NCBI GenBank assembly: GCA_030037635.1
Contig: JASHQH010000304.1
Location: forward strand, 1-40,480
From: Acidobacteriaceae bacterium
GTDB lineage: Bacteria; Acidobacteriota; Terriglobia; Terriglobales; Acidobacteriaceae
Direction: 5' to 3'
Length of the DNA stretch: 40,480 bases
Made by a program: the position numbers and the translations under genes. Within the stretch, counting starts at the first letter, position 1. Every line of letters starts with the position of its first letter. The notes beneath the pieces were generated by a model. That model had not been told where the DNA came from. It did not search any database and saw nothing but the letters and a program-made list of their open reading frames with translations. Shown here one piece after another: positions 2,220 through 26,568 of this stretch.

Positions 2220-2296
2220 AAGGACCTCCGGGAAGCATTAACTTAGCGGATGAGCGCAGGGGATGTCCAGAGGCGGAATCGAAGATGCCCGGCTCA

Positions 2297-2818: not shown

Positions 2819-2871
2819 CGGTCATTCTGCGACTTCAATTTGCGCCTCCAACCAACTGCACAAAGGAGGGT

Positions 2872-10732: not shown

Positions 10733-10797
10733 CTCTGGCAGGAGACACGTGGTAGATTGTTGGGCGACGTCAAATGATCAGTTTGTGGGAGGGTGGG

Positions 10798-12918
10798 ATG
10801 GCTGCCAGGGCAGCGATTGCAGCTCGTTCCGTCGCGGAACACTTTGCTTCAAATAAGACCTTCGTCCGGCTGCTGTGGGTTTTCATATTTCTGGCTCCTT
10901 GCATTGCAAGGTGCAGTGGACAGGCAGGCGGCACGACAACGCCTCAGCAAGCCGCTCCGAATCAGGCCACGCCCGGGAACGTTACGGCGGTTACGATCAC
11001 GCCCCAAAGCGTGACACTGGCTCCCGGCGACATCCAACAGTTTTCCGCAACGGTCAGCGGCACGGGCAGCTACGACGACCGGATCATGTGGGAGGTGAAT
11101 GGCGCGGATGGGGGCACAGCGGCGCTCGGGACCATCAGCAAGAGCGGGTTGTACGTGACGCCTTATCCGCCGCCCCAGTCGGTCGTCATCAGAGCGCGAA
11201 GCAGATTCGATCCAGAGAAGTCGGCCTCCGCCATCGTCCTGTTTGCGGCGCCGCCGCTGGCCGAGGGGCCCTCGCTCACTGTGGATGCCGGAGCCGCGCG
11301 CCATCCCATCAGTCCGCTGATTTACGGAATGAACGCGTGGCGGCAAACCGATCCCGATCATGAATCGGCCAAAGTGGCCAAAGCAGTGCGCCTCACGTTG
11401 AACCGATGGGGCGGCGACGGCGATACCCGGTATAACTACAAGCTCGATATCAGCAACGCCGGCGATCACTGGTTCTACGAAAACATTCCCAATGCCAACC
11501 AACATTATCCCGATGTTTCGGAATTCAACACCCAGGTGATAGGCGATCGTGCGAATGGAACCAAGACCATGGGGACAGTTCCGGTGATGGGATGGGTGGC
11601 AAAATCGCGATCCCGGGCGGGCAGCTTTTCCGTGGCCAAGTACGGGCAACAGCAGAAGACCGATCCCTACTGGACGGATTTCGGGAACGGCATCAGGCCT
11701 GACGGCACGAAGATCACAAACAACGATCCGACCGATACCTGCATGAAGGTGGACGCGAGCTGGAGCGAAGAGTGGGTGAAATACCTTGTGAGCAGATTTG
11801 GCGATGCTGCGCATGGAGGCGTGGCGATTTACTCACTCGATAACGAGCCCAACTGGTGGGATCTGAACCACCGCGATGTGCATCCCTTGCCCTTCACCTA
11901 CGACGAGGTGACAGAGAACGGGATCAAGGTGGCGCGAGCGGTGAAGGCCGCCGATCCCACGGCAGAGGTGAGTGGGCCGGTAATCGACAACTGGTATGCG
12001 TACTTCAACTCGCAAAAAGACCTTGAGACAGTCAAGAGGAACGGGCAGAGTTTCACGCATGATTTTTCCGATCGCATCGCGCACGGGAACGTGCCGTTGA
12101 TCGAGTACTACCTCAAGCAATTCAAGGCTGCGCAGGACGCCGACCCCAAGCATGCGCGCCTGCTCGATTACCTGGATGTGCACACGTATTTCGAGGCGGG
12201 ACACGCTGAATTCAAGCCCGCCGGCACGAGCGAAGAGCAGAGGGCGCTTCTCAACTCGACGCGCGTGTTCTGGGATCCGACCTACAGAGATGCGCGTCTG
12301 CGCGACCCGGAGAACTATGCCGAAACCATTGCGCCGCAGATCATCCCGAGAATGAAGCAGTGGGTTGCGGCGGATTATCCGGGCACCAAAACGGCAATTA
12401 CAGAATACAACTTTGGCGCGCAGGAACACATCAGCGGCGCGGTGGCGCAGGCCGACATTCTGGGCATCTTCGGGCGCGAGGGTCTCGACCTGGGTGCGCT
12501 GTGGGGTCCGCCGGAGCTCGACTCGCCGTCGATGTTCGCGTTCATGATGTTTCGCAACTACGACGGCGCCGGCGGAGAGTTTGGCGATACCAGCCTAGAG
12601 GCTGCCAGCAGCGATCAGGGCAAGCTGGCGATTTATGCCGCTGTGCGCGGCACGGACGATGCGGTAACAATGATCGTGGTCAACAAAACGTTTGGAGATT
12701 TGAAATCGGACGTTGTCCTGGCAAATCTGAAGATGGCCAGGCAGGTCAAGGTTTTTTCGTACAGTAACGCCGATTTGAAGCAGATTCGCGCGCTGCCGGA
12801 TGCGGCTGTGGTGGGCGAAACCGAAAAAGAGCGGAGGGGGAAGGTCAAAATCAGCGTGCTGAAGGACCAGGTGTTCCCGGCCATGTCGATTACGCTGTAC
12901 GTGGCGCAGGCGAAGTGA
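10798..12918 (+). CDS. Secreted glycoside hydrolase family 44 (endoglucanase/xyloglucanase) with Ig-like domain
   Basis: 706 residues from the ATG at 10798, chosen because GGGAGGGTGGG directly precedes it; an ATG 24 nt upstream is in frame but lacks a site. A signal peptide with hydrophobic core (LLWVFIFLAP, about 24-35) is followed by a Gln/Thr/Pro linker, then a bacterial Ig-like domain (VTAVTITPQSVTLAPGDIQQ onward, about 63-150). The GH44 module follows, with LIYGMNAW, LTLNRWGGDGDTRYNY, the acid/base in YSLDNEPNWW (Glu350) and the nucleophile in AITEYNFG (Glu536), and ends in a beta-sandwich. GH44 enzymes cut beta-1,4-glucans including xyloglucan and CMC. It appears monocistronic. It may link to the pentonate pathway at 32946-40044 if xyloglucan xylose is used, which is conjecture. 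Confidence 0.9.
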   Translation: MAARAAIAARSVAEHFASNKTFVRLLWVFIFLAPCIARCSGQAGGTTTPQQAAPNQATPGNVTAVTITPQSVTLAPGDIQQFSATVSGTGSYDDRIMWEVNGADGGTAALGTISKSGLYVTPYPPPQSVVIRARSRFDPEKSASAIVLFAAPPLAEGPSLTVDAGAARHPISPLIYGMNAWRQTDPDHESAKVAKAVRLTLNRWGGDGDTRYNYKLDISNAGDHWFYENIPNANQHYPDVSEFNTQVIGDRANGTKTMGTVPVMGWVAKSRSRAGSFSVAKYGQQQKTDPYWTDFGNGIRPDGTKITNNDPTDTCMKVDASWSEEWVKYLVSRFGDAAHGGVAIYSLDNEPNWWDLNHRDVHPLPFTYDEVTENGIKVARAVKAADPTAEVSGPVIDNWYAYFNSQKDLETVKRNGQSFTHDFSDRIAHGNVPLIEYYLKQFKAAQDADPKHARLLDYLDVHTYFEAGHAEFKPAGTSEEQRALLNSTRVFWDPTYRDARLRDPENYAETIAPQIIPRMKQWVAADYPGTKTAITEYNFGAQEHISGAVAQADILGIFGREGLDLGALWGPPELDSPSMFAFMMFRNYDGAGGEFGDTSLEAASSDQGKLAIYAAVRGTDDAVTMIVVNKTFGDLKSDVVLANLKMARQVKVFSYSNADLKQIRALPDAAVVGETEKERRGKVKISVLKDQVFPAMSITLYVAQAK

Positions 12919-13215: not shown

Positions 13216-15846
13216 TTATGCCATGGCTTCGCGGCCCATGGGCTCGAAGACAAGCTGGTTCGACTTGCGATCGGCGTCGATGCGGACGTGTGCGCCGTGC
13301 AGGATTTCGCCGTCGAGAATCTTCATCGCCAAGGGGTCCTGCACCATGCGCTGCAGCGCGCGCTTGAGCGGCCGCGCTCCGTAAGCCGCATCGGAGCCGG
13401 CTTTGAGAATCAGCTGGCGCGCCGCCTCGCTGAGTTCGAGCGAGATGGCGCGGTCGGTGAGCAGCTTGCGGATATCGTCGAGCCGCATCTCGAGAATCCG
13501 GCTGAGCTGTGCGTTCCCCAGCGGCTTGTAGATCACGATGTCGTCGACGCGGTTCAAAAACTCCGGCCGAAAGTGCTCGCGCAGGACCTTCATCACGCTC
13601 TCGCGCGCAATGTCGTAGTCGTGCTCGGTTTTGAGCACCTCGGCGCTCAGCATCGCAGCCCCCAGGTTCGAGGTCATGATGAGCACTGTGTTCTTGAAGT
13701 CCACCGTGCGGCCCTTGGAGTCGGTCAGACGGCCGTCGTCCATCACCTGCAGCAGCACGTTAAAGACGTCGGGGTGCGCCTTTTCGATTTCGTCGAAGAG
13801 GATGACCGCGTAGGGCCGGCGACGGATGGCCTCGGTAAGCTGGCCGCCCTCGTCGTAGCCGACGTAACCCGGAGGCGCGCCGATGAGGCGAGCCACGGCA
13901 TGTTTTTCCATGTACTCGCTCATGTCGATGCGCACCATGGCCTGCTCGTCGTCAAACAGAAACTCGGCGAGCGCGCGGGCGGTTTCGGTTTTGCCCACGC
14001 CTGTGGGTCCGAGGAAGATAAACGAGCCGATGGGGCGCTTGGGATCGCTCAAGCCGGCACGGGAGCGACGAATGGCGTTGGCCACGGTGCGCAGCGCGTC
14101 ATCCTGGCCGACCACGCGTTCGCGCAGCCGGTCTTCCATCTGGACAAGCTTTTTGACTTCGCCCTCGAGCATGCGGCTGACGGGAATGCCGGTCCATTTT
14201 GAAACGATTTTGGCGATGTCTTCCTCGTCGACCTCTTCCTTGAGCATGCGCGCGGCGGCGTTTTTGCCGGCGCCGTCCTGCGCTGCGTTCAGTTTCTTCA
14301 GCTCGGCTTCGAGCTTGGGCAGCTCGCCATATTGGATCTGCGCAGCGCGATCGAGCTGGCCTTTGCGTGTCTGCTCCTCCATTTCGAAGCGCAAGGCTTC
14401 GATCTTTTTCTTCAGGTCGCCGATGCGGTTGATGGCTTCGCGTTCTTTGGTCCAGCGGGCGCGGAGGCTGGTAATCTGCTCGCGCAGATTGCCGACCTCA
14501 TGCTCGACGGCCTTCAGGCGCTCCTTGCTGTTGGAGTCGGTTTCGCGCTTGAGGGCCGCGCGCTCGATTTCAAGCGACGTGGCCTGGCGTTCGAGCTGGT
14601 CGATTTCTGTCGGCACCGAGCCGATCTGGATGGCGAGCGACGCGGCCGCCTCGTCCACAAGGTCGATGGCCTTGTCGGGCAGGAAGCGGTCGCTGATGTA
14701 GCGATGCGAGAGCGTGGCCGCAGCCACGATGGCTGAGTCCTTGATGCGCACGCCGTGATGCCCTTCGTAGCGCTCCTTGAGGCCGCGCAAAATGGCAATG
14801 GTGTCTTCAACGTTGGGCTCGCCCACGTAGACGATCTGGAAACGGCGCTCGAGGGCCGCGTCTTTTTCGATGTATTTGCGGTATTCGTTGAGCGTGGTGG
14901 CGCCAATGGCCCGCAGTTCACCGCGCGCCAATGCCGGCTTGAGCATGTTGCTGGCGTCGATGGCGCCTTCGGCCGCGCCCGCGCCGACCAGCGTGTGCAG
15001 CTCGTCGATGAACAGAATGATCTGGCCGTTCGATTCTTCGATTTCTTTGAGGACTGCTTTAAGCCGGTCTTCGAACTCGCCGCGGTACTTGGCGCCGGCC
15101 AGCATGGAGCCCAGGTCGAGCGCGATGACGCGCTTCTCGCGCAGGCTCTCGGGCACGTCGCCGGAGACGATGCGGCGGGCGAGGCCCTCGACGATGGCGG
15201 TTTTGCCCACGCCGGGCTCGCCGATCAGCACGGGATTGTTTTTGGTGCGGCGGCTCAGCACCTGGATGACGCGGCGAATCTCTTCGTCGCGGCCAATCAC
15301 GGGATCAAGCTTGCCGCGGTGGGCCAGGTCGGTCAGATCCTTGGCGTATTTCTCGAGCGCCTGGAATTTTCCCTCGGGATTCTGGTCGGTCACGCGCTGC
15401 GAACCACGCACTGCGGTCAGCGCCTTGAGGATGGCATCCTTGGTCGCGCCCAGCGACACGAGAGCATCGCGCGCGGGGTCGCTCTTGAGGCCGGCCACGC
15501 CGAGCAGCAGGTGCTCAGTCGAGACGTAGTCGTCTTTAAAGTTCGCAGCCTCGCGGAAGGCCTGCTCGAGAACCTTGTTGAGCGCCTGGCCCGGGCCGGG
15601 CTGCGCGGCCGCACCCGCTTGACGAGGCAGTTTCTCCTCGACGCGGTGCAGGTCGCTCTCGAGGCGCTCGGTGGGTACACCGATCTTTTCGAGGACAGCG
15701 GGGATCACGCCCTCGCGGTCCTCAACCAGCGCCAACAACAGGTGCACGGGCTGGATCTCGGGGTTGCCGAGCTCGGCAGCGCGCGACTGGGCCTGCTGGA
15801 TGGCCTGCTGCGACTTGACCGTCAGTTTTTCAAAGTTGATCGCCAT
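13216..15846 (-). CDS. clpB: ATP-dependent disaggregase ClpB
   Basis: Hsp100 chaperone that works with DnaK to dissolve protein aggregates. 876 residues, as in the family. An N-terminal Clp repeat domain (1-150) precedes AAA1 with Walker A GEPGVGKT at 209-216 and [19 protein letters not shown]. The long coiled-coil M-domain follows (about 400-540), then AAA2 with [40 protein letters not shown] and [15 protein letters not shown]. The start ATG at 15846 follows AGGAGC. It lies downstream of hsp20 on the same strand, with a 370-nt gap that holds no gene. No CIRCE or HAIR operator was found, so the control of this heat-shock pair is unclear from sequence. Confidence 0.97.
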
Positions 15847-16216
15847 AAAAAACAGCTCCTAGCTACTACGGTGATTCCTGAGTAGATTTACCCTTTGTGG
15901 GGCCATTGCCGGGTCGACGGCTCCCTGTCGGTCCCACCCCACGAACAAAGATCGGTTCGCGGGGACCTCGGTCGATCGCGTCGACTCGGATGTGCCGCCT
16001 TCGAGACGCAGCAGCTCAGGAATCGCTTAAGCTGCTAGCTCCTAGCTTGATCCTGCCGGGAGCCGGCGTCCAGTTGCAGTTGTGAAATTCTAAATCTTCG
16101 ATGCGCTTGCAGATACACAGACGCCGGACGAAGCGCATTGCTCGCCCGGCGCCGCCACCAGCCTGTTGATCCCGGCTTGATGGCTGAGAACTGAAGCCGA
16201 CAGCTGAAAGCTGCTT
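15847..16216. other. 370-nt gap between hsp20 and clpB without a gene
   Basis: No coding frame stands out. CTTTGTGGGG (15893-15902) faces CCCCACGAACAAAG (15937-15950) as an imperfect inverted repeat with an ACGA bulge. AGCTCCTAGCT occurs twice, just before clpB and near 16027-16047, and GCTGAGAACTGAAGCCGACAGCTG-type low-complexity sequence runs up to the hsp20 stop. It resembles accumulated repeat debris. A clpB promoter must lie here or upstream of hsp20, but I cannot point to one. Confidence 0.5.
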
Positions 16217-16648
16217 TTACGCAGCCTGCTTTTCCACGTTCACCTTGATCTGCTTGGGCTGGGCTTCGGGCTTCTTGATGAGCTCAACCTTAAGCACGCC
16301 GGCATTGTAGCTGGCGGCTACGCTCTCGGTGTCAACCGTGGTGGGCAACGTGAAGGCACGGTAAAAGCTGCCATAACGCCGCTCGATGCGATGGAAGTTC
16401 TCTTCCTTCTCTTCCTTTTCGAACTTGCGTTCGCCCTTGACGGTCAGCGTGTTCTTTTCGACGCTCACGTTCAGGTCCTTCTCCTCGAGGCCGGGTACTT
16501 CGAGCTTGAGAACGACTTTCTTCTCGTCCTCATAGATGTCGACGGCCGGAATGAAATTGGCCGTGGTCAACGGGCTCTCGGTGTCAGCGCCGAACAGTGT
16601 ATTCCGCAGAACAGCAACGCGGAACGGGTCCCAACGAATAATCGCCAT
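16217..16648 (-). CDS. hsp20: Small heat-shock protein, Hsp20/alpha-crystallin family
   Basis: 143-residue holdase chaperone. The longer frame to 16711 was trimmed to the ATG at 16648 because CAGGAGGAAAG directly precedes it and the protein then begins MAIIRWDPFR, typical of bacterial Hsp20. The alpha-crystallin domain includes PAVDIYEDEKKVVLKLEVPG, LTVKGERKFEKEE, RRYGSFYRAFTLP and the A-x-x-x-x-G-V-L-like SYNAGVLKVELIKK. The C-terminal tail has the short EAQPKQIKV oligomerisation motif (I-x-V). It is probably the first gene of an hsp20-clpB stress unit. Confidence 0.95.
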   Translation of the reverse strand: MAIIRWDPFRVAVLRNTLFGADTESPLTTANFIPAVDIYEDEKKVVLKLEVPGLEEKDLNVSVEKNTLTVKGERKFEKEEKEENFHRIERRYGSFYRAFTLPTTVDTESVAASYNAGVLKVELIKKPEAQPKQIKVNVEKQAA

Positions 16649-16711
16649 GATGATCTTTCCTCCTGAGTCCAATGTCTTGGAATTGGGGCGGGGACGTAAG
16701 CTCCCAGCCAC

Positions 16712-16838: not shown

Positions 16839-18869
16839 TCAGGCAGGCGCGGGGGCCGGCTCCTGCAGCTGCTTTGGGGGCTGCTCAGAGGTGGTTGCCA
16901 GGCGGGTCAGGGTGAACACGGTGATGTCGTCTTCCTGGCCGAAGGTGCTGGCCGCACGGGCAATGCTTTGAGCGGACCCGGTGGAAATCGCTGCGGCGCG
17001 ATCGAAGCCGAAGAGCTGGCCGGAGGGATTGCGGGCTTCGATGACGCCGTCGGTGACGAGGGTGAGTTGTGTGTCCGCGGGGAGATTGAAAGCCGTTTCG
17101 GGATAGATCGAATCGGCGGAGAGGCCGAGGGGCAGTCCGTTCTCGAGGTCGAGTTCTTTCCCCTTGAGATAGGGCGCCAGGTGGCCGGCGTTGGCGACGG
17201 TTACGACGCCGCTGAGGTCAGCGTGGAGTGCGAGGCAGGTGGTGAAGCCGCCGGCCTGTCTTTCGAGCAGCAACTCGTTGAGCTTAGCCAGCACGGCCGA
17301 AGGCGCGAGGGGCTCGTGCCGCAGCAGGTCGAGCGCGCCGATGACCGCGGAGACAACCATGGCGGCGGCAAGGCCCTTGCCGCTGACGTCGCCGATGACG
17401 ATGCGCCTGGCGCCGCCAGGGAATGTGGCCACGTGATAAAAGTCGCCGCCCAGCTCGGCTGCGGCCCGGTAAACCGAGTCGATTTTCCAGCCTGCGCCGG
17501 TGGACTCCGCAGTTTTCAGCAGGATGGACTGAATGCGCTGCGCGGCTTCGACCTCAGAGCGTTGCCGCGTAAGCCGCGCGCTCACGCTGGCAAAGCGATC
17601 GAGGAGAATCCACCCCATAATCGGCAAAAACAGAAAGAGCGAGAGTTTGTCCGCGGTCAGCGGGAAGGGGCGGTTGAGTACATTGGGCAATTGAATGAAT
17701 CTGTGTTGCAGACCGAGAATATAGCTCCAAGCGAGCAGGACGTTACCCACGCCCACGCTGCCCCGGGCAATCCACGCAATGAAGACTTGCCTTGCCTCAA
17801 CCATGTGCCACCGGCGCAGCAGAATCGGGAGTGTGGTTCCATAAAACACGAGGATGGCGACTGACGGGGCAACAACTTCGAATAGCGACGACAGCCATCG
17901 CCCGCCAAAAGACCCAGAGATGGTCGCCGCCGCGGTTAGCAGGCAAAGGGAGACGCCAAACCAGAAGAGGGTTCGGCTGATGCGGCCCATGGGCTCATGC
18001 ACGATGGCGAAGATGAACAGGAAGGCGCAAGAAAAGGTTCCCAGTAAGCAAATTGACAGGCCGACACCCATCCATGACGTATCGATGAGAGCGCCGGGGA
18101 AGAGCCCGTAAATAAGCGGCTGGCTGACGGAAGCAAACAAGACGCTCAGGCCAAGCAAAAGGTACTCGCGGCTGCCGCGCTGGCGCAGCCAGAGGACAAT
18201 TGCGACAAAGCTTGAGCAAACGGCGAGAATCGAGGAGAATATCTCCACGGTGGACTGCTCGGTGATAAGCAGGTTGCGGTAGTTATTGAGAGGCTTAACC
18301 AGTTCCGGAGATCCGATGAGGAAACCCGGCAAAGCGCCTGAGCCTGCCGGAACAGTGTCATTGGCGTGGAAGCCACCCACGCCGCCCTGCGCCGCAAAAT
18401 CAAAAACAAAGACGCGAACAGCGATCACCATGTCGGCGCCCTGAACGCTGGCGGTGTAATAGCCGTAGGGGCGGTGAACGAGATGCGCCCGCGAAGACAA
18501 AACTCCCGCGCCGCCGACCAGCGTACCGTTGACAAAAAGCTGGTAGGCATTATCAATGTGGACCGGCGCCAATGCGAGGGTAAGCCCGGGTGCGGGAAGG
18601 TGTATGTGAACGCGATACCAGGCAAAGCCGTGATACCCCGCATATCCCTGCTGGGACCAGCTCTTATTTGCGTAGAGGAGCGGCCAGGAACGGTCGTCGA
18701 ATGCCGGATTGGCCCAGCCGGGATCGTCGCCGGTGTGAAAGCGCCACTGTACGGGGCTGAGATCGGCCAGCAACTGCCGGCTGGCGGAGAGATCGACCGT
18801 CTGTGCCGCCGCGCTGGCGCCGATTGGCAACAGCATCAGAAGCAGAAGCCCGCTTCGGAAGCTACGCAT
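16839..18869 (-). CDS. Membrane SpoIIE/PP2C phosphatase with periplasmic jelly-roll domain, array gene 5 (last)
   Basis: 676 residues. Start ATG at 18869 follows GAGGTG and overlaps the preceding gene by 8 nt; a longer frame upstream is only the wrong-frame shadow of that neighbour. Order: signal peptide (MRSFRSGLLLLMLLPIGASA, AxA-Q site), a galactose-binding-like domain (WRFHTGDDPGWANPAFDD and FAWYRVHIHLPA), about seven membrane helices (about 215-420), a short coiled coil, and a SpoIIE phosphatase domain (about 446-660). The metal-binding acids are in GGDFYHV, IGDVSGKG, TDGVIEAR and EDDITVFTL. Such phosphatases typically dephosphorylate STAS anti-sigma antagonists. Unlike the other four it ends in a Pro/Ala/Gln tail (EQPPKQLQEPAPAPA) and not EVxHA, consistent with no downstream gene to couple. 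Confidence 0.88.
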   Translation of the reverse strand: MRSFRSGLLLLMLLPIGASAAAQTVDLSASRQLLADLSPVQWRFHTGDDPGWANPAFDDRSWPLLYANKSWSQQGYAGYHGFAWYRVHIHLPAPGLTLALAPVHIDNAYQLFVNGTLVGGAGVLSSRAHLVHRPYGYYTASVQGADMVIAVRVFVFDFAAQGGVGGFHANDTVPAGSGALPGFLIGSPELVKPLNNYRNLLITEQSTVEIFSSILAVCSSFVAIVLWLRQRGSREYLLLGLSVLFASVSQPLIYGLFPGALIDTSWMGVGLSICLLGTFSCAFLFIFAIVHEPMGRISRTLFWFGVSLCLLTAAATISGSFGGRWLSSLFEVVAPSVAILVFYGTTLPILLRRWHMVEARQVFIAWIARGSVGVGNVLLAWSYILGLQHRFIQLPNVLNRPFPLTADKLSLFLFLPIMGWILLDRFASVSARLTRQRSEVEAAQRIQSILLKTAESTGAGWKIDSVYRAAAELGGDFYHVATFPGGARRIVIGDVSGKGLAAAMVVSAVIGALDLLRHEPLAPSAVLAKLNELLLERQAGGFTTCLALHADLSGVVTVANAGHLAPYLKGKELDLENGLPLGLSADSIYPETAFNLPADTQLTLVTDGVIEARNPSGQLFGFDRAAAISTGSAQSIARAASTFGQEDDITVFTLTRLATTSEQPPKQLQEPAPAPA

Positions 18870-18879
18870 GTGCCACCTC
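18862..18879 (-). promoter_or_regulatory. Coupled ribosome-binding site/start/stop overlap, gene 4 to gene 5
   Basis: The upstream gene ends GAG GTG GCA CAT GCG TAG (E-V-A-H-A-stop). GAGGTG is the Shine-Dalgarno and ATGCGTAG contains the next start, giving an 8-nt overlap (18862-18869). The same design occurs at the other three junctions. Confidence 0.85.
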
Positions 18880-20760
18880 GGCGGCAGCCAACTGGAGCGT
18901 GAGCACGGTGATGTCGTCCTCCTGGCCGAAGTGTTGAGCCGCACGGGCAATGTTTTCGGCCGATTCGGTGGAAATTGCCGCCGTCCGGTCGAAGCCAAAG
19001 AGCTCGCCGCTCGCGCTGCGGGCTTCAATGACGCCGTCGGAGACAAGCACCATGGGCTCGCGTTCGCCGAGTTGGAGCATTTTTTTGGGGAACGCGGTGT
19101 TGGGCAATGCACCCAAGGGCAATGCGCCATCGAGAGCCAGCTCGCGGCCGTTGATGTAAGGCGGCAGATGGCCGGCGTTGGCCAGCTCCACGCTCCCGTT
19201 GCGGTCGATGCGCATGGCCAGGCACGTCACCAGGCCACGGCCTTGAAGGCGCTCATTAAGCAGGGCCAGAATCCTGCCGGGATCGGAGGTGAACTGAAAT
19301 GCGGTGCGAATGGCGCCGACGATCAGGGCTGCGAGCATGCCGGCCTTCAGTCCTTTTCCCGCCACGTCGCCGACCACGATCAAGGTCCCTCCGTCGCGCG
19401 GGTCGGGCAGCACCTGGAAGAAATCTCCGCCGACTTCACGCGAAGGACGGTAGACGCTGCGGATGGCCAGGCCGGGAGTGGGTGGCAGCGTTTCGGGGAT
19501 CAGGTAGCGCTGAATCTCTGCCGCAGCTTCCATTTCGCCGGCGAGCAGCGAGCGCTCCGCCGCGATCCTGCGCTGGTTGCGGAAGAGGATGGCCAGGAGA
19601 GCGAGAACGGAGCAGACGGTCGTCGAGGCACGGAGGATGAGCAAGTACTTCTGCAGGACAAGATTGCCGGCGTCACTCTCAAGCCCGAGGCCCCAGGCTT
19701 CCCAGTTCAGGAACCAGAGAAACTCGGCACAGCCCCAGGCGATGCAGAAAAAGGCGATGGCACGCAGACCGCGCGCGATGCGATTCCACGGCCAGAAGGC
19801 TGCAAACGGAGCGGTGGCGCAAATCAAGCCAGCGACAAAGATAAGCCAGGCGTAGTGAAGGTAGAGTGCATTCTGGCGGAGACTCAGCAACGGAGACAGG
19901 AAGGCGCTTGCCAAGAGGTCGAGAGTGAAGAGGATGGTGGAGAGAGCGATCGCTACGCGATAGAGCCAGGGAATGCGCCGACCGGCAATACGGAAAATGA
20001 ACCAGACCCAGAAGATTTCCAGGGTTTGCGCACTGCCATAAACGACGTAGTAAAGCGCAGACGGCATAGGAACGAGCGCGTACAGGCAGAACTCCGAGAG
20101 GCGCAGGAGGCAGAGGCACCAGCAAACGCAGGCGAGGAGCAAGAGTTCGAGCCGGCTGCGGTCGCTGACGTAAAGGCCGAGCAGCATGAACCCGACCACG
20201 CCGATGAGGCTGAAGCAGAGACCGATGGGAAGATAGCCGAGCGCGCCGGAGAGCACAGCGGCATCGCGGTGATCGTCGAGGGCCGTGAGGTCGCCGAGAA
20301 GGATTTCGGCGGGGGTGGTCTGTACCTGGGGGTCGCGATAAGCGATGCGCAACGCCAGCGTGGCGGCGGGTGTGAGGGATGCAGGCGCGAGCGGGACGGT
20401 GTAGAAGTCACCCATGGAGAACTGCGCGTTGGCGAAATCGCCACTGGAGCCGGCGAGTGCGCCGTTGACGTAAACCTGCGATGCGGCAAGCAGGTGTACC
20501 TGCAGGGCGGGGTGGCCGAGGGAGCGCAGCACGGCGAGATTGGCGTGACAGCGCACCCAGTAGTACGGCTGGTCGGCACTTAGCGTCCACTGCGTATACG
20601 GCTGCCAGCCGGACTCGTCGATGCCGGGCGAGGCCCAGGCCGGGTAGTCGCCCGCGTGCCAGACGCATTGCTGCGGAGCGAGCGTGACGGTGGACTGCGC
20701 GCGCAGGTGCGGCGCGGCAATGAGTACGAGGACCGTGAGCACTGGGGCAAATCTACGCAT
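18862..20760 (-). CDS. Membrane SpoIIE/PP2C phosphatase with periplasmic jelly-roll domain, array gene 4
   Basis: 632 residues from the ATG at 20760 (signal peptide ending HLRAQ). The N-terminal domain shows TLAPQQCVWHAGDYPAWASP and YYWVRCHANLAVL, the same subtype as array gene 2. About seven helices follow (about 185-390), then a coiled coil with EIQRYLIPETLP and the SpoIIE domain (about 412-620). Active-site motifs are EVGGDFFQVLPDPRDG, VVGDVAGKGLKAGM, VSDGVIEAR and GQEDDITVLTL; all metal ligands are present, so it should be active. By hand count its phosphatase domain differs from that of gene 2 at about 21 of 215 positions and from gene 3 at about 30. The C-terminus EVAHA is written by the next gene's ribosome-binding site and start. 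Confidence 0.88.
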   Translation of the reverse strand: MRRFAPVLTVLVLIAAPHLRAQSTVTLAPQQCVWHAGDYPAWASPGIDESGWQPYTQWTLSADQPYYWVRCHANLAVLRSLGHPALQVHLLAASQVYVNGALAGSSGDFANAQFSMGDFYTVPLAPASLTPAATLALRIAYRDPQVQTTPAEILLGDLTALDDHRDAAVLSGALGYLPIGLCFSLIGVVGFMLLGLYVSDRSRLELLLLACVCWCLCLLRLSEFCLYALVPMPSALYYVVYGSAQTLEIFWVWFIFRIAGRRIPWLYRVAIALSTILFTLDLLASAFLSPLLSLRQNALYLHYAWLIFVAGLICATAPFAAFWPWNRIARGLRAIAFFCIAWGCAEFLWFLNWEAWGLGLESDAGNLVLQKYLLILRASTTVCSVLALLAILFRNQRRIAAERSLLAGEMEAAAEIQRYLIPETLPPTPGLAIRSVYRPSREVGGDFFQVLPDPRDGGTLIVVGDVAGKGLKAGMLAALIVGAIRTAFQFTSDPGRILALLNERLQGRGLVTCLAMRIDRNGSVELANAGHLPPYINGRELALDGALPLGALPNTAFPKKMLQLGEREPMVLVSDGVIEARSASGELFGFDRTAAISTESAENIARAAQHFGQEDDITVLTLQLAAAEVAHA

Positions 20761-20770
20761 GGAGCACCTC
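20753..20770 (-). promoter_or_regulatory. Coupled ribosome-binding site/start/stop overlap, gene 3 to gene 4
   Basis: GAG GTG CTC CAT GCG TAG encodes E-V-L-H-A-stop of gene 3 while GAGGTG and the overlapped ATG serve gene 4. The overlap is ATGCGTAG (20753-20760). Confidence 0.85.
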
Positions 20771-22669
20771 TCGCGGAGCGTACTGAAGGGTGAGCACGGT
20801 AATGTCGTCCTCCTGGCCGAAGGTGCTGGCTGCATGGGCAATACTTTGGGCGGATTCAGTGGAAAGCGCTGCAGCGCGCTCGAAACCGAAGAGCTCGCCG
20901 CTCGCGCTGCGGGCTTCAATGACGCCGTCGGAAACGAGCACCATGGACTCGCCCTCGCCAAGCGCCAGCCGTTTGGCCGGAAACCTGGTGTCGGGCAGCG
21001 CGCCCAGCGGCAAAGCGCCGTCGAGAGCGAGCTCGTGGCCGTTGATGTAAGGCGGCAGATGGCCGGCGTTGGCCAGCTCGACAGTTCCATCCCGGGCGAT
21101 GCGCATGGCCAGGCAGGTCACGAGGCCACGGCCCTGCAGGCGCTCGTTGAGCAGGGCCAGAATGCGGCCGGGATCGGAGGTGAATTTGAATGCGGTGCGA
21201 ATGGCGCCGACGATCAGTGCCGCGAGCATGCCGGCCTTCAGTCCCTTCCCGGCTACGTCGCCGACAACAATCAGCGTGCTTCCGTCGCGCGGGTCGGGAA
21301 GCACCTGGAAAAAGTCGCCGCCCACTTCGCGCGCCGGTTGGTAGACGCTGCGGATGGTGAGGCCGGGAGTCGCCGGCAGCGTTTCGGGGATCAGGTACTG
21401 CTGGATCTCGCGGGCCGCCTGAAGCTCGGCGGCAGAACGCGCCTGCTCGCGGCTGACGCGCGTGAAGCGGAAGAACATGACAACGCCGATGGCGAGAGGG
21501 AAAAGCAAGTCGGCGAAATCGAAGTAATCGACGGCAAACGGGCCGACGGAGAAGCTTTTGGCGAGAGCGGCGAGGTGCGGAAGCCCGAACTCTGCGCCAA
21601 TGAGGCCGGCGTCGAGGACGGAAAGCGTGAAGAGAGGCAAGAGGCTGGGCAGAATCAGCCATCCCGCTTCGCTGTTTCCGCGGCGATACCAGTAGAGCAG
21701 CAACAGAGGCAACAGGAAGGCGGCGGGCAAGAGGACTAAAATCTCGCCGGTGTTAAAGGTTCCACGGCTGAGCCAGCCCAGCCACGCCGGGATCAGGAGG
21801 CAAGCAGGATAAGCAAAAAGAAGGCCCTCGTAAAAGCGCCAGCTCCGGGTGACGCGCTGGCCAACGAAGCAGAAAGTGAATTCGATTTGAAAGAAGGCAT
21901 CGAGATAATTTCCAGGATCGGCTATGAGCCAATTGAGGGAAAAGGGAGCAAAACCGTGAGTGGCTAACGAGTAGTACGGCGTGGTGATTGCATCAGTGAG
22001 CAGGAAGAAACTGAGCCAAAGATATTCGCGATGGTCGGGCTGGTAAAAGAAAAGGAAGAGAAGTGGAACGCCTGCAAATATTTCGACGAGGTGGATGGCC
22101 AGCGCAGAGGCGACCTGGTTGAAGCGTGCGGCAACATCGGCGCGATGAGCGTCGCGGATGGCGGGGAGGGTACCGAGAGCGACGCGGAGGGAGCCACGAT
22201 CGGCCAGAAACATGGAGGTGGGAGGAATGTGGGTGCGCAAAGCGATGACTGCGCCTCCACCGAAGGTGGGAAGCACGACGACCTGAGTGCGAGGATAGGT
22301 GACAAGCAAATCAGAGCGCAAATCTGGGCCGGGTACGCGCTGGCCGTTGAGGTAAACCTCCAGCGTGCCGCTGCCGCCGGTGACCAGAAGCGCGAGCGGG
22401 GTGGCAGAGGCAGGAATTTCGGTGTGGAGGCGATACCAGCGCCAGCCAGCCTCGTCGTTGGCCGGGCTGAGCGCGACGACGGGCGAGGCGCTATCGTCGA
22501 ACCCGGGCTGCGCCCAGGCGAGATTGTCGCCTGCCAGCATCCGCCAACCGTCGTTGAGATCGATGGAGCCGTTGGGCCAGGCCGGGACAGCGCCTTGCGC
22601 GGAGGCAAAACAGCCGCCGAGCAGTAGCAGGAGCAGGAGGCCGAGAGTGCTGACGGCTAACCTACGCAT
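20753..22669 (-). CDS. Membrane SpoIIE/PP2C phosphatase with periplasmic jelly-roll domain, array gene 3
   Basis: 638 residues from the ATG at 22669. The signal peptide ends LLLLLLLGGCFASAQ; LGGC is a possible lipobox, but ASA-Q is an equally good signal peptidase I site and matches the other four proteins. The N-terminal sugar-binding-like domain (GWRMLAGDNLAWAQPGFDD, WYRLHTEIP, TLEVYLNGQRV) is the most divergent of the five. About seven helices follow (about 195-400), then EIQQYLIPETLP and a SpoIIE domain with EVGGDFFQV, VVGDVAGKG, VSDGVIEAR and EDDITVLTL, all intact. It ends REVLHA at the coupled junction. An input ligand cannot be named from sequence. Confidence 0.88.
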   Translation of the reverse strand: MRRLAVSTLGLLLLLLLGGCFASAQGAVPAWPNGSIDLNDGWRMLAGDNLAWAQPGFDDSASPVVALSPANDEAGWRWYRLHTEIPASATPLALLVTGGSGTLEVYLNGQRVPGPDLRSDLLVTYPRTQVVVLPTFGGGAVIALRTHIPPTSMFLADRGSLRVALGTLPAIRDAHRADVAARFNQVASALAIHLVEIFAGVPLLFLFFYQPDHREYLWLSFFLLTDAITTPYYSLATHGFAPFSLNWLIADPGNYLDAFFQIEFTFCFVGQRVTRSWRFYEGLLFAYPACLLIPAWLGWLSRGTFNTGEILVLLPAAFLLPLLLLYWYRRGNSEAGWLILPSLLPLFTLSVLDAGLIGAEFGLPHLAALAKSFSVGPFAVDYFDFADLLFPLAIGVVMFFRFTRVSREQARSAAELQAAREIQQYLIPETLPATPGLTIRSVYQPAREVGGDFFQVLPDPRDGSTLIVVGDVAGKGLKAGMLAALIVGAIRTAFKFTSDPGRILALLNERLQGRGLVTCLAMRIARDGTVELANAGHLPPYINGHELALDGALPLGALPDTRFPAKRLALGEGESMVLVSDGVIEARSASGELFGFERAAALSTESAQSIAHAASTFGQEDDITVLTLQYAPREVLHA

Positions 22670-22679
22670 GCATCACCTC
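22662..22679 (-). promoter_or_regulatory. Coupled ribosome-binding site/start/stop overlap, gene 2 to gene 3
   Basis: GAG GTG ATG CAT GCG TAG encodes E-V-M-H-A-stop of gene 2 and supplies the Shine-Dalgarno and start of gene 3 (overlap 22662-22669). Confidence 0.85.
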
Positions 22680-24548
22680 GGCGGGAGCAAGCTGAAGCGT
22701 GAGAACGGTGATGTCGTCCTCCTGGCCGAAGTGCTGGGCGGCGAGGGCAATGTTTTCGGCGGATTCAGTGGAAATGGCGGCCGTGCGGTCGAAGCCGAAG
22801 AGCTCGCCGGAGGAGTTGCGCGCTTCGATGACCCCATCGGAAACAAGAACCACGGACTCGCCTTCGCCGAGCTGCAGCCGCTTGGCCGGGAACGCGGTGT
22901 TCGGCGTTGCGCCCAGGGGCAAGGCACCATCCAACACCAGCTCACGACCGTTGACGTACGGCGGCAGATGCCCGGCGTTGGCCAGATCCACGCTTCCACT
23001 GCGATCAATGCGCATGGCCAGGCACGTCACCAGGCCGCGGCCCTGCAGCCGCTCGTTGAGCAGGGCCAGAATCCCGCCGGGGTCGGAAGTGAACTGGAAT
23101 GCGGTACGAATGGCGCCGACGATCAGCGCCGCCAGCATGCCGGCCTTCAATCCTTTTCCCGCCACGTCGCCGACAACAATCAGCGTGCTTCCGTCGCGCG
23201 CGTCGGGAAGCACCTGGAAGAAATCGCCGCCCACTTCACGCGCGGGCTGGTAGACACTGCGGATGGCCAGGCCGGGAGTCGCCGGCAACGTTTCGGGGAT
23301 GAGGTAGCGCTGAATTTCGCGGGCCGACTCCATTTCGCCGTGGAGTTCTGCGCGTTCTTCGTTGGTGGTTCGCAACTGCCGCACCAGCAGAATGGTCATC
23401 GATACTACGACCGCGGCGATGGCCATGGAGCGGTAGGGCTGAATTTTCAGGAACATGGAGATGACGTCAAGATTCAGGAAGGGAAACTGGACGACGAAGT
23501 AGGCTGCATCCATCAGCATCCACACAAAACACACAATGGCCAGGGGCGTCTGCCCCTTGCGTACGGAGCCCAGCGGCAGGAATGCGGCCGGAGCGGCAAA
23601 GCAGGCTGTCAGACTGAGCAGGTCTTCGAGAGTGGACATTGCGGGCGTGACCTCGGTGAACCAGCGAAGCGCGACGCCTGCATGCAAGGGCAGCAGGCTA
23701 GCCGTCACAAGAAAAATCGGAAAGAACAAGTTCGCGCCAAGGATGATGCGGAACAAAAGCGGGACGGGCTTACGATTCACCGAGAAGAAGAAGAGGATGA
23801 CGAAGGCGGGCAGGCATTGCCCGATTGCATAGAGAAAGAATTCCAGGTGGGAAGAGTAGTGGACTGACGCCGAGACGAGAAACTCGTTAATGCGGAGAGT
23901 AGCGAGATCGAGCCAGGCGAGACTGATCCAGAGAATGTAGCGTTGCGTACGGTCGAACCAGTAGAGCGCTAAAAAGAACAGGCCTGCGGAGGCGATGAGG
24001 GCGTAGCACGCCCAGGTGACGGCCTGGGCTTGCGTGTGCTCGTACACCTGGCTCCAGTAGGTGCTGCGCTGGAGAGAGGAGTCACCGAGAGCAAGCAGAG
24101 GCAGTGCCTGGCTGTCGTTGACTTCGGGGGTGAAGGTCATGCGCACAGCGACCAGGATCAACCCATTTCGGCGAGAGAGTTCGGGCGCAGAATCATCGGC
24201 GACGGTGCCCACGGTGTGCGTGCCGGTGACAATGTTGCCGGAAGCAGCGATCAGACGGCCGTCGACGAAGACTTGCCAGGCGAGGTCGCCGGAAACCTGG
24301 AGTTGCGGATTGACGGCCAGCGCAAGCTGGGCGGGATCGAATCGGCAACGCAGCCAGAAATTCGGCGTGCGCGTGGCGATTCCGGGCCACTCCGATGCGG
24401 GCTGCCACGCGGATTCATCGAGGTTCGCTGCAGCCCAGCGCAAGTCATCGCCCTGCTTCCACACGCACTGTTGCGGCGTGATGGTCAGTGCGGTTTGGGC
24501 GGCGACAGGAATGGGCAGAAGCAGCAAAGGCAGCAGCGCCTTACGCAT
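22662..24548 (-). CDS. Membrane SpoIIE/PP2C phosphatase with periplasmic jelly-roll domain, array gene 2
   Basis: 628 residues from the ATG at 24548 (signal peptide MRKALLPLLLLPIPVAAQ). The open frame extends to 24806, but that part only shadows the neighbour in another frame. The sensor domain shows TITPQQCVWKQGDDLRWAAA and FWLRCRFDPAQL, clearly the same subtype as gene 4. About seven helices (about 185-395) lead to ESAREIQRYLIPETLP and a SpoIIE domain with EVGGDFFQVLPDARDG, VVGDVAGKGLKAGM, VSDGVIEAR and EDDITVLTL. All catalytic acids are kept. It ends AEVMHA at the coupled junction. Confidence 0.88.
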   Translation of the reverse strand: MRKALLPLLLLPIPVAAQTALTITPQQCVWKQGDDLRWAAANLDESAWQPASEWPGIATRTPNFWLRCRFDPAQLALAVNPQLQVSGDLAWQVFVDGRLIAASGNIVTGTHTVGTVADDSAPELSRRNGLILVAVRMTFTPEVNDSQALPLLALGDSSLQRSTYWSQVYEHTQAQAVTWACYALIASAGLFFLALYWFDRTQRYILWISLAWLDLATLRINEFLVSASVHYSSHLEFFLYAIGQCLPAFVILFFFSVNRKPVPLLFRIILGANLFFPIFLVTASLLPLHAGVALRWFTEVTPAMSTLEDLLSLTACFAAPAAFLPLGSVRKGQTPLAIVCFVWMLMDAAYFVVQFPFLNLDVISMFLKIQPYRSMAIAAVVVSMTILLVRQLRTTNEERAELHGEMESAREIQRYLIPETLPATPGLAIRSVYQPAREVGGDFFQVLPDARDGSTLIVVGDVAGKGLKAGMLAALIVGAIRTAFQFTSDPGGILALLNERLQGRGLVTCLAMRIDRSGSVDLANAGHLPPYVNGRELVLDGALPLGATPNTAFPAKRLQLGEGESVVLVSDGVIEARNSSGELFGFDRTAAISTESAENIALAAQHFGQEDDITVLTLQLAPAEVMHA

Positions 24549-24558
24549 GCAGCACCTC
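24541..24558 (-). promoter_or_regulatory. Coupled ribosome-binding site/start/stop overlap, gene 1 to gene 2
   Basis: GAG GTG CTG CAT GCG TAA encodes E-V-L-H-A-stop of gene 1; GGAGGTG and the overlapped ATG (24541-24548) start gene 2. It uses TAA where the other three junctions use TAG. Confidence 0.85.
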
Positions 24559-26568
24559 CGCCGGCGCAAGGGTGAGCGTGAGCACGGTAATGTCATCCTC
24601 CTGGCCGAAGTGCTGAGCCGCACGGGCAATGTTTTCGGCGAGTTCCGTGGAAAGCCGGGCCGCCCGCTCGAACCCGAACAGCTCGCCCTGCGCGTTGCGC
24701 GCCTCAACGACGCCATCGGAGAGGAGAGTGAGCTGCACGCCGGGGCGGAGCCGGAAGCGCGACTCCTTATAAACCGGACTTTCTTCAAGTCCCAGCGGCA
24801 GGCCACATTCGACGGCGATTTCCTTGCCGTCGAGATAGGGCGGCAAGTGGCCGGCGTTGGCAGCCGTCAGCGCGCCGTCGGGATCGGCGCGCAAAACGAG
24901 ACACGTCGTAAATCCGCCCTGGCTGCGGGTCAGCATGCGCTGGTTCATGGCGGCCAGAATCTCGCCGGGGCGTTGCGTGTAGTGGGCGAGGGTGCGCACC
25001 GTGCCGACGAGGAGCGAAACCGTCATCGCGGCGGGCATGCCTTTGCCGCTCACATCGCCGATGACGACGAGGACGCCACCCGTGGCCAGCGGCAGAATCT
25101 GGAAGAAGTCGCCGCCGACTTCGCCGGCGGGCTTGTAGACGCTGTCAATTTTGAATCCCGGCACTTCGGGAATCTCGGCGGGGATGAGAACCTGCTGCAC
25201 GGCGCGCGCGTTCTGGAACTCCCGCTCCATGGCTAACTGGTGACGTGTATTCTCAGCGGCGTACCGGTAGACGGCGAAGGCAAGCACGATAAGCAGGAGG
25301 GTTTCGCTGATGATGTCGAGGGTGACGGGGCTTCCAAAGATGGTGAAGAGTGGCGCGGCAATCCTGTTCCCCAAGGTCCAGTGCGTAAAGCGACTGCCCT
25401 GCTCGAAGGTGTAGCTCGAGATGAAGAGCATCTGGGTGAGGAGCGCGACGAGGGCGACCATCCAGCGCGTCCAGTCGAGACGCGTGCGGCGCATGAGAGC
25501 CACAGCAATGATGTAGAAGGGGATGGCTTCAAAGATTGTGATGGGTACAGTGAGCAACGCATCGATCCATTGCCATGGGGCAGGATTGGGCAGCGCCATG
25601 CCGAAGCCGGTAAAGGTATCGAGAGCGCCCGCGACCAATTCCGTGACCACAGCCCAGCGCACTACGCGCATCAGCCGGGAATCGCCGCGTACATCCAGCA
25701 GCCAGGTGAGCAGGAGCCAAAGCGAGACATCGCCGACGCAAAAGAACGGCGTGCTCACCGACGCTCCCATGCAACCAGAGAGGGGCAGGACATTCACTGC
25801 GAACGTGGGCACAGTGGCATGCGCGAAAGCGAACCCAGCCATCCAGAGAACGAGCCATTGCCGCCGATCGCGGAACCAGACGATGAGACAGACGAGAGCG
25901 ACGAGAAAGTAAAGCGAGTTGAGCGCAAAGTTGAGTTGCTGGCCGAGGAGCCAGTTGTAATTCCAGACGCCGGCGGCCGCGGCAACGGCGGGCGCGCTCC
26001 CCAGGACTGGCGGCGCTTCAAAACCGCCCTGGACGCCGGTATCGTACGAGCCAAAGCCGTCTTTCCACACGCGAACGGCCAAAACGCCCGGCTGGGGTGC
26101 GCCGAGAGTGAAGATGGCCGGCCAGGGATTCGCCCAAAGATTCAGTTGCGGCGGGACTTTGCCCAGCGAGCCGATGAGGCGGCCGTTCCAATAGACTTCG
26201 TAGGCGTCGTCGACTTGCGGAACCAGCAATGTGATGGTCGCGGGAGCGCCGGGCGAGAAGGAAACGTGCATCCGGTACCAGCCGAAGCCTTCGGTGTTGG
26301 GATGGCCCTGCGCGCCCCAGGGCTGGTCGGCCGAGAGCTGGTCCCAGGACGAGTCGTCGAATGCGGGTGAGGCCCAGGCCGGGTTGTCGCCGGTATGAAA
26401 TTGCCAGGGGCCGTGGAGCGCAACGCTGCCGCCATCGAGATGGAGCGGAGCGGCGGCCGGACCGGCGCCGGGCACAGTGGGAGGAGATTGGGCAAAAAGA
26501 TGAACCGTGGCGGAGACGAGAGCCAGAGACAGCAGTCCCGCTGAGACGGAAAGGCTGCGGGGAAGCAT
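24541..26568 (-). CDS. Membrane SpoIIE/PP2C phosphatase with periplasmic jelly-roll domain, array gene 1 (first)
   Basis: 675 residues from the ATG at 26568, which gives a normal signal peptide (MLPRSLSVSAGLLSLALVSA, then TVHLFAQ). An in-frame ATG at 26649 would add 27 residues before it; neither start has a clear Shine-Dalgarno. The sensor domain (GPWQFHTGDNPAWASPAFDD, FGWYRMHVSFSPG, DDAYEVYWNGRLIGSLG) is of the same subtype as gene 5. About seven helices lie at about 225-435. The phosphatase domain has EVGGDFFQILPLATGG, VIGDVSGKGMPAAM, LSDGVVEARNAQGELFGFER and EDDITVLTLTL. It is the first gene of the array and divergent from the TSUP permease, so the array promoter should lie in 26569-26693. 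Confidence 0.88.
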   Translation of the reverse strand: MLPRSLSVSAGLLSLALVSATVHLFAQSPPTVPGAGPAAAPLHLDGGSVALHGPWQFHTGDNPAWASPAFDDSSWDQLSADQPWGAQGHPNTEGFGWYRMHVSFSPGAPATITLLVPQVDDAYEVYWNGRLIGSLGKVPPQLNLWANPWPAIFTLGAPQPGVLAVRVWKDGFGSYDTGVQGGFEAPPVLGSAPAVAAAAGVWNYNWLLGQQLNFALNSLYFLVALVCLIVWFRDRRQWLVLWMAGFAFAHATVPTFAVNVLPLSGCMGASVSTPFFCVGDVSLWLLLTWLLDVRGDSRLMRVVRWAVVTELVAGALDTFTGFGMALPNPAPWQWIDALLTVPITIFEAIPFYIIAVALMRRTRLDWTRWMVALVALLTQMLFISSYTFEQGSRFTHWTLGNRIAAPLFTIFGSPVTLDIISETLLLIVLAFAVYRYAAENTRHQLAMEREFQNARAVQQVLIPAEIPEVPGFKIDSVYKPAGEVGGDFFQILPLATGGVLVVIGDVSGKGMPAAMTVSLLVGTVRTLAHYTQRPGEILAAMNQRMLTRSQGGFTTCLVLRADPDGALTAANAGHLPPYLDGKEIAVECGLPLGLEESPVYKESRFRLRPGVQLTLLSDGVVEARNAQGELFGFERAARLSTELAENIARAAQHFGQEDDITVLTLTLAPAEVLHA

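What the first reader, a model, noticed from the sequence alone, without database searches (positions are those of the whole stretch)
16839..26568. Five-gene tandem array of sensor-phosphatases (signal peptide, jelly-roll domain, 7TM, SpoIIE)
Five complete paralogues in a row on one strand share the order signal peptide, galactose-binding-like extracytoplasmic domain, about seven helices, coiled coil, SpoIIE/PP2C domain. Every copy keeps the metal-binding acids (GGDF, GDVxGKG, SDGV or TDGV, EDDIT). The family is known for dephosphorylating STAS anti-sigma antagonists, but no STAS protein, anti-sigma kinase or sigma factor is encoded in these 40 kb. Five probably active receptors in one transcript imply a multi-input device with a shared cytoplasmic target, possibly for different carbohydrates or polysaccharide fragments. 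I know of no described system with this arrangement.
Basis: partly seen in the sequence, partly recalled or inferred. Interest (0 to 1): 0.75.

Follow-up and report, generated by a model that had tools for sequence, protein, structure and literature searches.

The report
Tandem sensor-phosphatase cassette arrays in Acidobacteria
A soil bacterium carries five membrane sensors in a row that share one kind of phosphatase output; relatives carry up to ten, have swapped outputs between sensors at one fixed seam, and hint at which small regulatory protein the outputs act on.

Summary
In detail: five intact genes (26568 to 16839, minus strand), each with signal peptide, extracytoplasmic part, membrane helices, linker and SpoIIE/PPM phosphatase with its metal-binding acids. 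The host (by its relatives an Acidobacteriaceae) has 29 SpoIIE matches, several in further arrays; relatives have arrays of 2-10. The missing partner is found outside the window: in three other genera a like 7TM phosphatase gene directly follows a soluble PP2C, an RsbW-type kinase and an RsbV-type STAS gene, and such a STAS gene heads three long arrays. The host keeps that three-gene module on contig C135. Best explanation: several sensors funnel onto one partner-switching module, in trans here. Two further features seem undescribed, as far as my limited search shows. (1) All four window junctions are one 8-nt stop/start overlap, ATGCGTAR, with the next gene's ribosome-binding site written into the conserved tail. 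(2) Catalytic domains are exchanged between sensors at the coiled-coil linker: B, C and D share 89-90% of the core but 24-33% of the sensor, while B's sensor orthologue elsewhere has a different core. Ligands, substrate and regulated genes are untested; linkage to STAS is seen for a minority of arrays. A new variant of a known kind.

The parts
24541..26568 (-). gene A: 7TM sensor phosphatase, 675 aa, first gene of the array
   Evidence: Pfam SpoIIE 4e-39; AF2 model pLDDT 88.4 with 7 membrane helices; sensor matches GH2/sialate esterase domains
22662..24548 (-). gene B: sensor phosphatase, 628 aa; sensor orthologue of L018 gene 2 but with a D-type catalytic core
20753..22669 (-). gene C: sensor phosphatase, 638 aa; D-type catalytic core
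18862..20760 (-). gene D: 7TM sensor phosphatase, 632 aa; orthologues in L018 and L019 with like core
   Evidence: AF2 model pLDDT 86.9
16839..18869 (-). gene E: sensor phosphatase, 676 aa, last gene; lacks the EVxHA tail that carries the next ribosome-binding site
24541..24548 (-). A/B junction, 8-nt stop/start overlap ATGCGTAA, with SD-like GAGGTG just upstream inside A
22662..22669 (-). B/C junction, ATGCGTAG, GAGGTG upstream
20753..20760 (-). C/D junction, ATGCGTAG, GAGGTG upstream
18862..18869 (-). D/E junction, ATGCGTAG, GAGGTG upstream
22662..23318 (-). homogenised catalytic core and tail of B, from the linker (E of EIQ) to the stop; core 90% aa, 85% nt identical to D
   Evidence: limits computed from the domain offset, approximate
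20753..21409 (-). homogenised catalytic core and tail of C (approximate limits, by the same length)
18862..19518 (-). catalytic core and tail of D, the likely source type (approximate limits, by the same length)

Best explanation
The array is one translationally coupled operon of five 7TM receptors, akin to 7TMR-DISM receptors, whose output is an RsbU/SpoIIE-type PPM phosphatase. Each periplasmic domain senses its own ligand; the signal passes through the seventh helix into a coiled-coil linker and switches the phosphatase (inferred from RsbU). The shared substrate is most likely the phosphorylated RsbV-type STAS protein of a conserved soluble-PP2C/RsbW/RsbV module, encoded here on contig C135 and reached in trans; its dephosphorylation would free whatever the RsbW-type kinase holds. 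Over evolution sensors and catalytic domains have been recombined at the linker, so that new sensors are joined to a common output. Shown: gene structure, 8-nt overlaps with SD-like motif, catalytic motifs, domain exchange, linkage of like genes to RsbW/RsbV genes in relatives. Inferred: single transcript, ligand classes, substrate, direction of regulation, and how the exchange happens (gene conversion or unequal crossing over).
For: All four window junctions, three of C48 and two of C138 have the 8-nt overlap. Over 95 sources, 50 of 81 SpoIIE genes followed by another carry both the overlapping start and an SD-like motif, against 11 of 97 not followed. Linkage: soluble PP2C, HATPase_c_2, STAS, then a membrane SpoIIE gene in order on one strand in 8 of 9 regions read (those eight were chosen because one search showed a SpoIIE ORF after the STAS, the ninth because it did not), from three genera of the family, one in a one-contig genome (L163); Pfam confirms the four in L163, with 7TMR-DISM_7TM at 8e-4, under its cut-off. 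In Bryobacter L063 the module is followed by nine SpoIIE ORFs in a row, and STAS precedes arrays of 7, 10 and 5 in L022, L038, L045. The array-head STAS is of C135 type (61 of 106 aligned residues identical; six other host STAS proteins 19-27 identical of 77-106; two of the nine not compared). Exchange: B versus its sensor orthologue L018-2: sensor 61, TM 59, core 44 aa%; B versus D core 90; L019-4 versus L032-3: 92.6% sensor+TM, 46.2% core, break at the linker. PPM folds match RssB, Rv1364c, SiaA, SpoIIE.
Against: STAS lies upstream of only 4 of 33 arrays; of the 19 arrays with at least 1200 nt of upstream DNA held, 1 has it, and the window array has none. In the window's own genus a SpoIIE gene follows the C135-type STAS in 1 of 30 loci read, 1.5 kb flanks. 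A second RsbW/RsbV-type pair (C166) is present in 21 of 21 genus genomes by the places and could be the target instead. SpoIIE number rises with STAS number over 21 genomes (rho 0.63), which could mean several targets or just genome size. A, B/C/D and E have three core types, so one substrate is less sure for A and E. No promoter or terminator signal stands out. No biochemistry exists.
Confidence: 0.6

Rival explanations
1. The target is another STAS protein, or each core type (A, B/C/D, E) has its own, for example the STAS of the C166 RsbW/RsbV-type pair, so that the array feeds a different pathway or several parallel ones.
For: Nine STAS matches in the host, several with DSSG/DSAG-like Ser motifs by eye; C166-type pairs in 21 of 21 genus genomes; cores of A and E are 41-48% like B/C/D; substrate loops are the variable parts of PPM phosphatases (PMC11418112, passages).
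Against: The STAS found beside like phosphatases in the family searches is of C135 type, though those searches started from that STAS; B, C, D share one core; the tail with the loop after SDGV is the most homogenised part.
Confidence: 0.25
2. The phosphatases oppose other Ser/Thr kinases or act on non-STAS proteins.
For: No STAS found in the window.
Against: Linkage to RsbW and RsbV genes in relatives; closest folds include RsbU-type domains.
Confidence: 0.09
3. No exchange: cores are alike only because they evolve slowly and sensors fast.
For: Cores are in general better conserved than sensors; in 15 of 23 orthologue pairs with a same-array paralogue the core is closer to the orthologue.
Against: Sensor orthologues with alien cores: L019-4/L032-3 92.6% then 46.2%; window B/L018-2 60% then 44% while B/D cores are 90%. 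Rate differences cannot make the conserved part the more different one.
Confidence: 0.03
4. The hybrid genes are short-read assembly chimaeras.
For: Most genomes here are metagenome bins, and SpoIIE cores are repeats.
Against: Longest identical DNA between B and D is 29 nt, B and C 37 nt. The named genome Terracidiphilus gabretensis S55 has a pair with 43% TM and 91% core identity (L077), though this pair alone does not prove exchange.
Confidence: 0.06

Closest known systems
7TMR-DISM receptors (Pfam PF07695; extracellular domains DISMED1/2)
   Same: signal peptide, extracytoplasmic beta domain, seven helices, cytoplasmic effector; 7 of 52 aligned proteins match PF07695, best 4e-7
   Different: the five window proteins do not match PF07695 at E<0.1; the sensors resemble GH2 sugar-binding domains; coupled tandem arrays with exchanged outputs were not met in the papers seen. 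The founding paper is not held and is known to me by recall
RsbU/SpoIIE-type PPM phosphatases of partner-switching modules (RsbU-RsbV-RsbW; SiaA; Rv1364c)
   Same: catalytic fold and metal acids; linker helix before the domain; linkage to STAS and HATPase_c_2 genes in relatives
   Different: membrane receptors in arrays of up to ten; in the window no linked STAS or kinase
Coiled-coil linker model of PPM phosphatase control (PMC12143880, abstract and passages read)
   Same: proposes that sensors are modularly exchangeable at the linker
   Different: here natural exchange at the linker is seen in sequence between array members; the passages read do not mention such arrays
Signaling helix between sensors and PP2C and other outputs (PMC1592074, passages read)
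   Same: a helix joins diverse sensors to PP2C phosphatases; 7TMR-DISM proteins are in its data set
   Different: whether the linker here is that helix was not tested
Expanded SpoIIE-like phosphatases of Sorangium and Streptomyces (PMC2887360, passages read)
   Same: lineage-specific expansion of sensor-fused SpoIIE phosphatases in soil bacteria
   Different: in Sorangium periplasmic-binding, HAMP, FHA or GAF fusions; the word tandem does not occur in the text

Membership tests
7TMR-DISM | 7TM region matches PF07695 | tested here: inconclusive
   0 of 5 window proteins at E<0.1; 7 of 52 aligned proteins at E up to 0.1, best 4e-7; L163 phosphatase 8e-4, under the curated cut-off
7TMR-DISM | extracytoplasmic N-terminal domain plus seven helices | tested here: met
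   AF2 models of A and D; B, C, E by hydropathy only, which gives 6-8 internal hydrophobic peaks, one or two of them in the sensor or phosphatase part
7TMR-DISM | DISMED1 or DISMED2 extracellular domain | tested here: inconclusive
   no PF07696 (DISMED2) among the 11 families matched by 52 proteins; GH2-type PF02837 in 17 of 52 at E up to 0.1. DISMED1 has no model that I searched by name; that it is itself GH2-like is recalled
SpoIIE/RsbU PPM phosphatase | PF07228 over cut-off | tested here: met
   5 of 5
SpoIIE/RsbU PPM phosphatase | metal-binding Asp residues (SpoIIE D628, D746, D795) | tested here: met
   GDV, [ST]DGV and DDIT motifs in 5 of 5; residue numbers from PMC8080068, correspondence by motif only
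SpoIIE/RsbU PPM phosphatase | dephosphorylates a STAS protein | not testable with these tools
   genomic linkage only
partner-switching module | STAS and RsbW-type kinase genes next to the phosphatase | tested here: not met
   not in the window; met for like genes in relatives

The most novel reading that the evidence does not exclude
The arrays are a dedicated receptor-repertoire system: recombination within the alike output domains keeps plugging new sensors into one partner-switching pathway, with the linker as seam and the built-in ribosome-binding site and 8-nt overlap making every inserted cassette expressed at once, a bacterial analogue of receptor gene clusters with variable sensors and a constant output, possibly varying between cells of one population.
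Probability: 0.22. Interest if true: 0.85.

Novelty: new variant of a known kind. Interest (0 to 1): 0.6.

Why it matters
How modularly sensors can be exchanged between signalling outputs was left as an open matter in the RsbU work (PMC12143880, passage). These arrays are a natural series of such joins with a common breakpoint, and they point to a candidate substrate, so the question can be tested directly. They also give a handle on environmental sensing in Acidobacteria.

Tried and rejected
Promoter and terminator scan: counts not above shuffles. STAS in the window: none found. Correlation of SpoIIE with STAS and kinase counts over 21 genomes: positive (0.63, 0.52), not decisive. Nearest-neighbour test for concerted evolution: sensor 9 of 84, TM 9, core 12, tail 24 in the same array against 2.8 by chance; strong for the tail, modest for the core; 5 of 89 array genes had no measured array partner and were left out, and 55 of 194 SpoIIE ORFs were dropped before (fewer than 420 aa upstream, low score or no SDG motif). 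A 362-nt identity of C and D was rejected: the two stop-to-stop frames overlap the same DNA, so C and D were not measured. A search for relatives of L022's first array gene showed related sensor-less phosphatases of about 450-530 codons in several arrays. I first called the soluble PP2C of the C135 module a GAF protein by eye (also in my notes); Pfam gave no GAF match, so the name is withdrawn. L045 and L107/L110 are the same record, L140 is L022 and L141 is L038 by place, so they are not independent. A 4-nt pattern counted was too loose and is not used.
Full report
What is there. The minus strand from 26568 to 16839 holds five intact genes, A to E in order of transcription, of 675, 628, 638, 632 and 676 codons. 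Each has a signal-peptide-like start, an extracytoplasmic stretch, several hydrophobic helices and a C-terminal SpoIIE domain. All five keep GGDF, GDV[SA]GKG, [ST]DGV and EDDIT. SpoIIE D628, D746 and D795 bind the metal (PMC8080068, passage); I match them by motif. AlphaFold2 models of A (52-sequence alignment, pLDDT 88.4) and D (22 sequences, 86.9) give a beta-rich domain, seven membrane helices, the last running without break into the linker, and a PPM domain. Foldseek matches the PPM part to RssB, Rv1364c, SiaA and SpoIIE; for A it also finds a GH2 glucuronidase (6ed1, E 2e-7), for D no GH2 domain in the 50 rows shown. By sequence the profile of A and its relatives hits a sialate O-acetylesterase (8e-18) and GH2 enzymes. 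Of 52 aligned proteins (A and E of the window, host paralogues and relatives) 7 match 7TMR-DISM_7TM and 17 Glyco_hydro_2_N at E up to 0.1; none of the five window proteins matches 7TMR-DISM_7TM.

Neighbours. Scanned ORFs around the array are an HSP20, a ClpB-like ATPase, a GH44 hydrolase, a decarboxylase, MutS2, a dicarboxylate symporter, dehydrogenases and others; none of the 30 is STAS, an RsbW-type kinase or a sigma factor, and home-made STAS and HATPase profiles found none in the window.

The host genome. It has 29 SpoIIE matches: the window array, four in a row on C48, three on C138 (its last gene is followed by an open frame to the contig end, probably a fourth), two on C208, two on C30 in opposite directions, and single copies. 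It has 9 STAS and 12 HATPase_c_2 matches, 5 over cut-off. In 21 genomes of the genus SpoIIE ranges 4-29, STAS 3-14 and HATPase_c_2 (E<1e-6) 2-8.

Arrays are common in the lineage. The 77 named loci most like the window proteins (a capped and therefore biased set, all from Acidobacteria by title) with 17 host loci and the window make 95 sources; 93 hold SpoIIE ORFs, 194 in all, and 33 arrays have 2 to 10 genes. The longest are L038 (10), L063 (Bryobacter, 9 ORFs, two of which may be pieces of one gene), L025 (8) and L022 (7).

The junction. In the window all four junctions are an 8-nt overlap, ATGCGTAA once and ATGCGTAG three times: the stop of one gene lies inside the second and third codons of the next. 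C48 (3 of 3) and C138 (2 of 2) have the same; C208 uses 4 nt. Over the sources 56 of 81 followed genes have a start at this place and 50 of 81 also an SD-like motif, against 18 and 11 of 97 not followed; the loci are related, so these are not independent. The consensus of the 56 is GAGGTGCTCC-ATGCGTAR. The conserved C-terminal peptide AEVLHA thus looks like the by-product of writing the next gene's ribosome-binding site and start. Gene E, the last, lacks it. Some unfollowed genes with the motif run into a next frame that the locus end cuts off; others, such as the last gene of C48, have the motif with nothing long after it.

Exchange of outputs. In the window B, C and D share 89-90% of the catalytic core and 78-92% of the tail, but in the multiple alignment only 24-33% of the sensor and 15-23% of the membrane part (pairwise alignment gives 33-38% and 26-35%). 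That alone could be rate. The orthologue test is not: B's sensor orthologue (L018-2) is 61% alike in sensor, 59% in membrane part, 44% in core, while B and D cores are 90% alike and D's own orthologue core is 81%. L019-4 and L032-3 are 92.6% identical in sensor and membrane part and 46.2% in core, the change falling within 20 residues of the ELEAAR linker stretch. C48 gene c has a foreign tail (orthologue 70%, neighbour 92%). Of 30 reciprocal sensor-orthologue pairs of at least 50%, 23 have a same-array paralogue; in 8 of 23 the core and in 14 of 23 the tail is closer to the best paralogue of either array; taking the best of several paralogues favours this. Identical DNA runs between B and D are at most 29 nt, between B and C 37 nt, so assembly collapse is unlikely.

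The likely target. Upstream of the arrays L022, L038 and L045 is a STAS gene on the same strand, at about 150-270 nt by my choice of starts; in L063 a soluble PP2C, a HATPase_c_2 and a STAS gene precede the array. Of 33 arrays 4 have STAS upstream, 4 of 7 with five or more genes, against 1 of 64 single genes; but of the 19 arrays with 1200 nt or more upstream held only 1 has it, and 1 of 55 such single genes. L040 starts at a contig edge. The head STAS is of the same type as the host's C135 STAS (61 of 106 identical; six other host STAS proteins 19-27 identical of 77-106; two not compared). That type occurs in 67 of 80 genus genomes at E up to 1e-15; of 30 loci read, 29 show a soluble PP2C (often cut by the 1.5-kb flank), HATPase_c_2 and STAS in order, with no SpoIIE gene after it, and the thirtieth is the L045 array. 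In the wider family a strict search (E up to 1e-36) found 22 places in 19 of 300 genomes; 10 of 22 show a SpoIIE ORF on the same strand right after the STAS (two of these are L022 and L038 again). The other eight and one without were read further: 8 of 9 have the four-gene order with a membrane phosphatase frame of 666-770 codons, the FDDxW sensor motif in 3 of the 8, from three genera by the labels; Pfam confirms the four proteins of L163. The simplest history is a single 7TM phosphatase behind the module, multiplied and detached in the window's lineage; this is inference. A rival target is the C166-type STAS/HATPase_c_2 pair, which by the places is present in 21 of 21 genus genomes.

Mechanism. 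By analogy with RsbU, whose linker forms a coiled coil that dimerises and activates the phosphatase (PMC12143880, abstract and passages), ligand binding would rearrange the seventh helix and the linker. Substrate choice by SpoIIE and RsbU lies in three loops (PMC11418112, passages); one, near SpoIIE P752, lies shortly after D746 and so in the tail that is most homogenised here. Whether that explains the homogenisation is untested.

Literature. Ten searches for SpoIIE or phosphatases with Acidobacteria, Acidobacteriota, 7TMR-DISM, tandem, gene conversion and related terms listed no paper on such arrays; two searches showed 15 of 115 and 15 of 539 papers. The library lacks most subscription papers and the founding 7TMR-DISM paper. 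A paper on paralogues in Solibacter usitatus does not contain the words SpoIIE or phosphatase in its held main text.

Verdict. Real, not unique to this window, explained in outline as multi-sensor input to a partner-switching module, with an unusual coupling junction and domain exchange that seem undescribed.

Noticed in passing
L045:1154-1669 (same record as L107, L110): the first array gene is shortened: start and first helix run straight into the tail, and SDG reads SDD, so it looks like a decayed copy
   Followed up: no
L001:9097-10563, L003:3155-4531, L022:912-2414, L025:1573-3078, L038:1188-4047, L040: array members of about 450-530 codons with membrane helices but no evident extracytoplasmic domain, at the head of several arrays; they are related to each other
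   Followed up: partly
G000:C166:7352-8210 (L096): a second STAS plus HATPase_c_2 pair, on a contig without a SpoIIE match; adjacent pairs of the same kind are in 21 of 21 genus genomes by the places
   Followed up: partly
G020:C111:3751-5253: four STAS matches in a row in a genus relative
   Followed up: no
L063:16062-17880: two overlapping SpoIIE frames that look like pieces of one gene in the Bryobacter array
   Followed up: no
window 10774-12918 +: GH44 glycoside hydrolase with a Big_2 domain, near the array but on the other strand
   Followed up: no
window 1056-3774 -: citrate synthase, DUF2165 and a PEP mutase/isocitrate lyase-like gene in a row
   Followed up: no
window 13216-16711 -: HSP20 and ClpB-like ATPase genes directly downstream of the array on the same strand
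   Followed up: no
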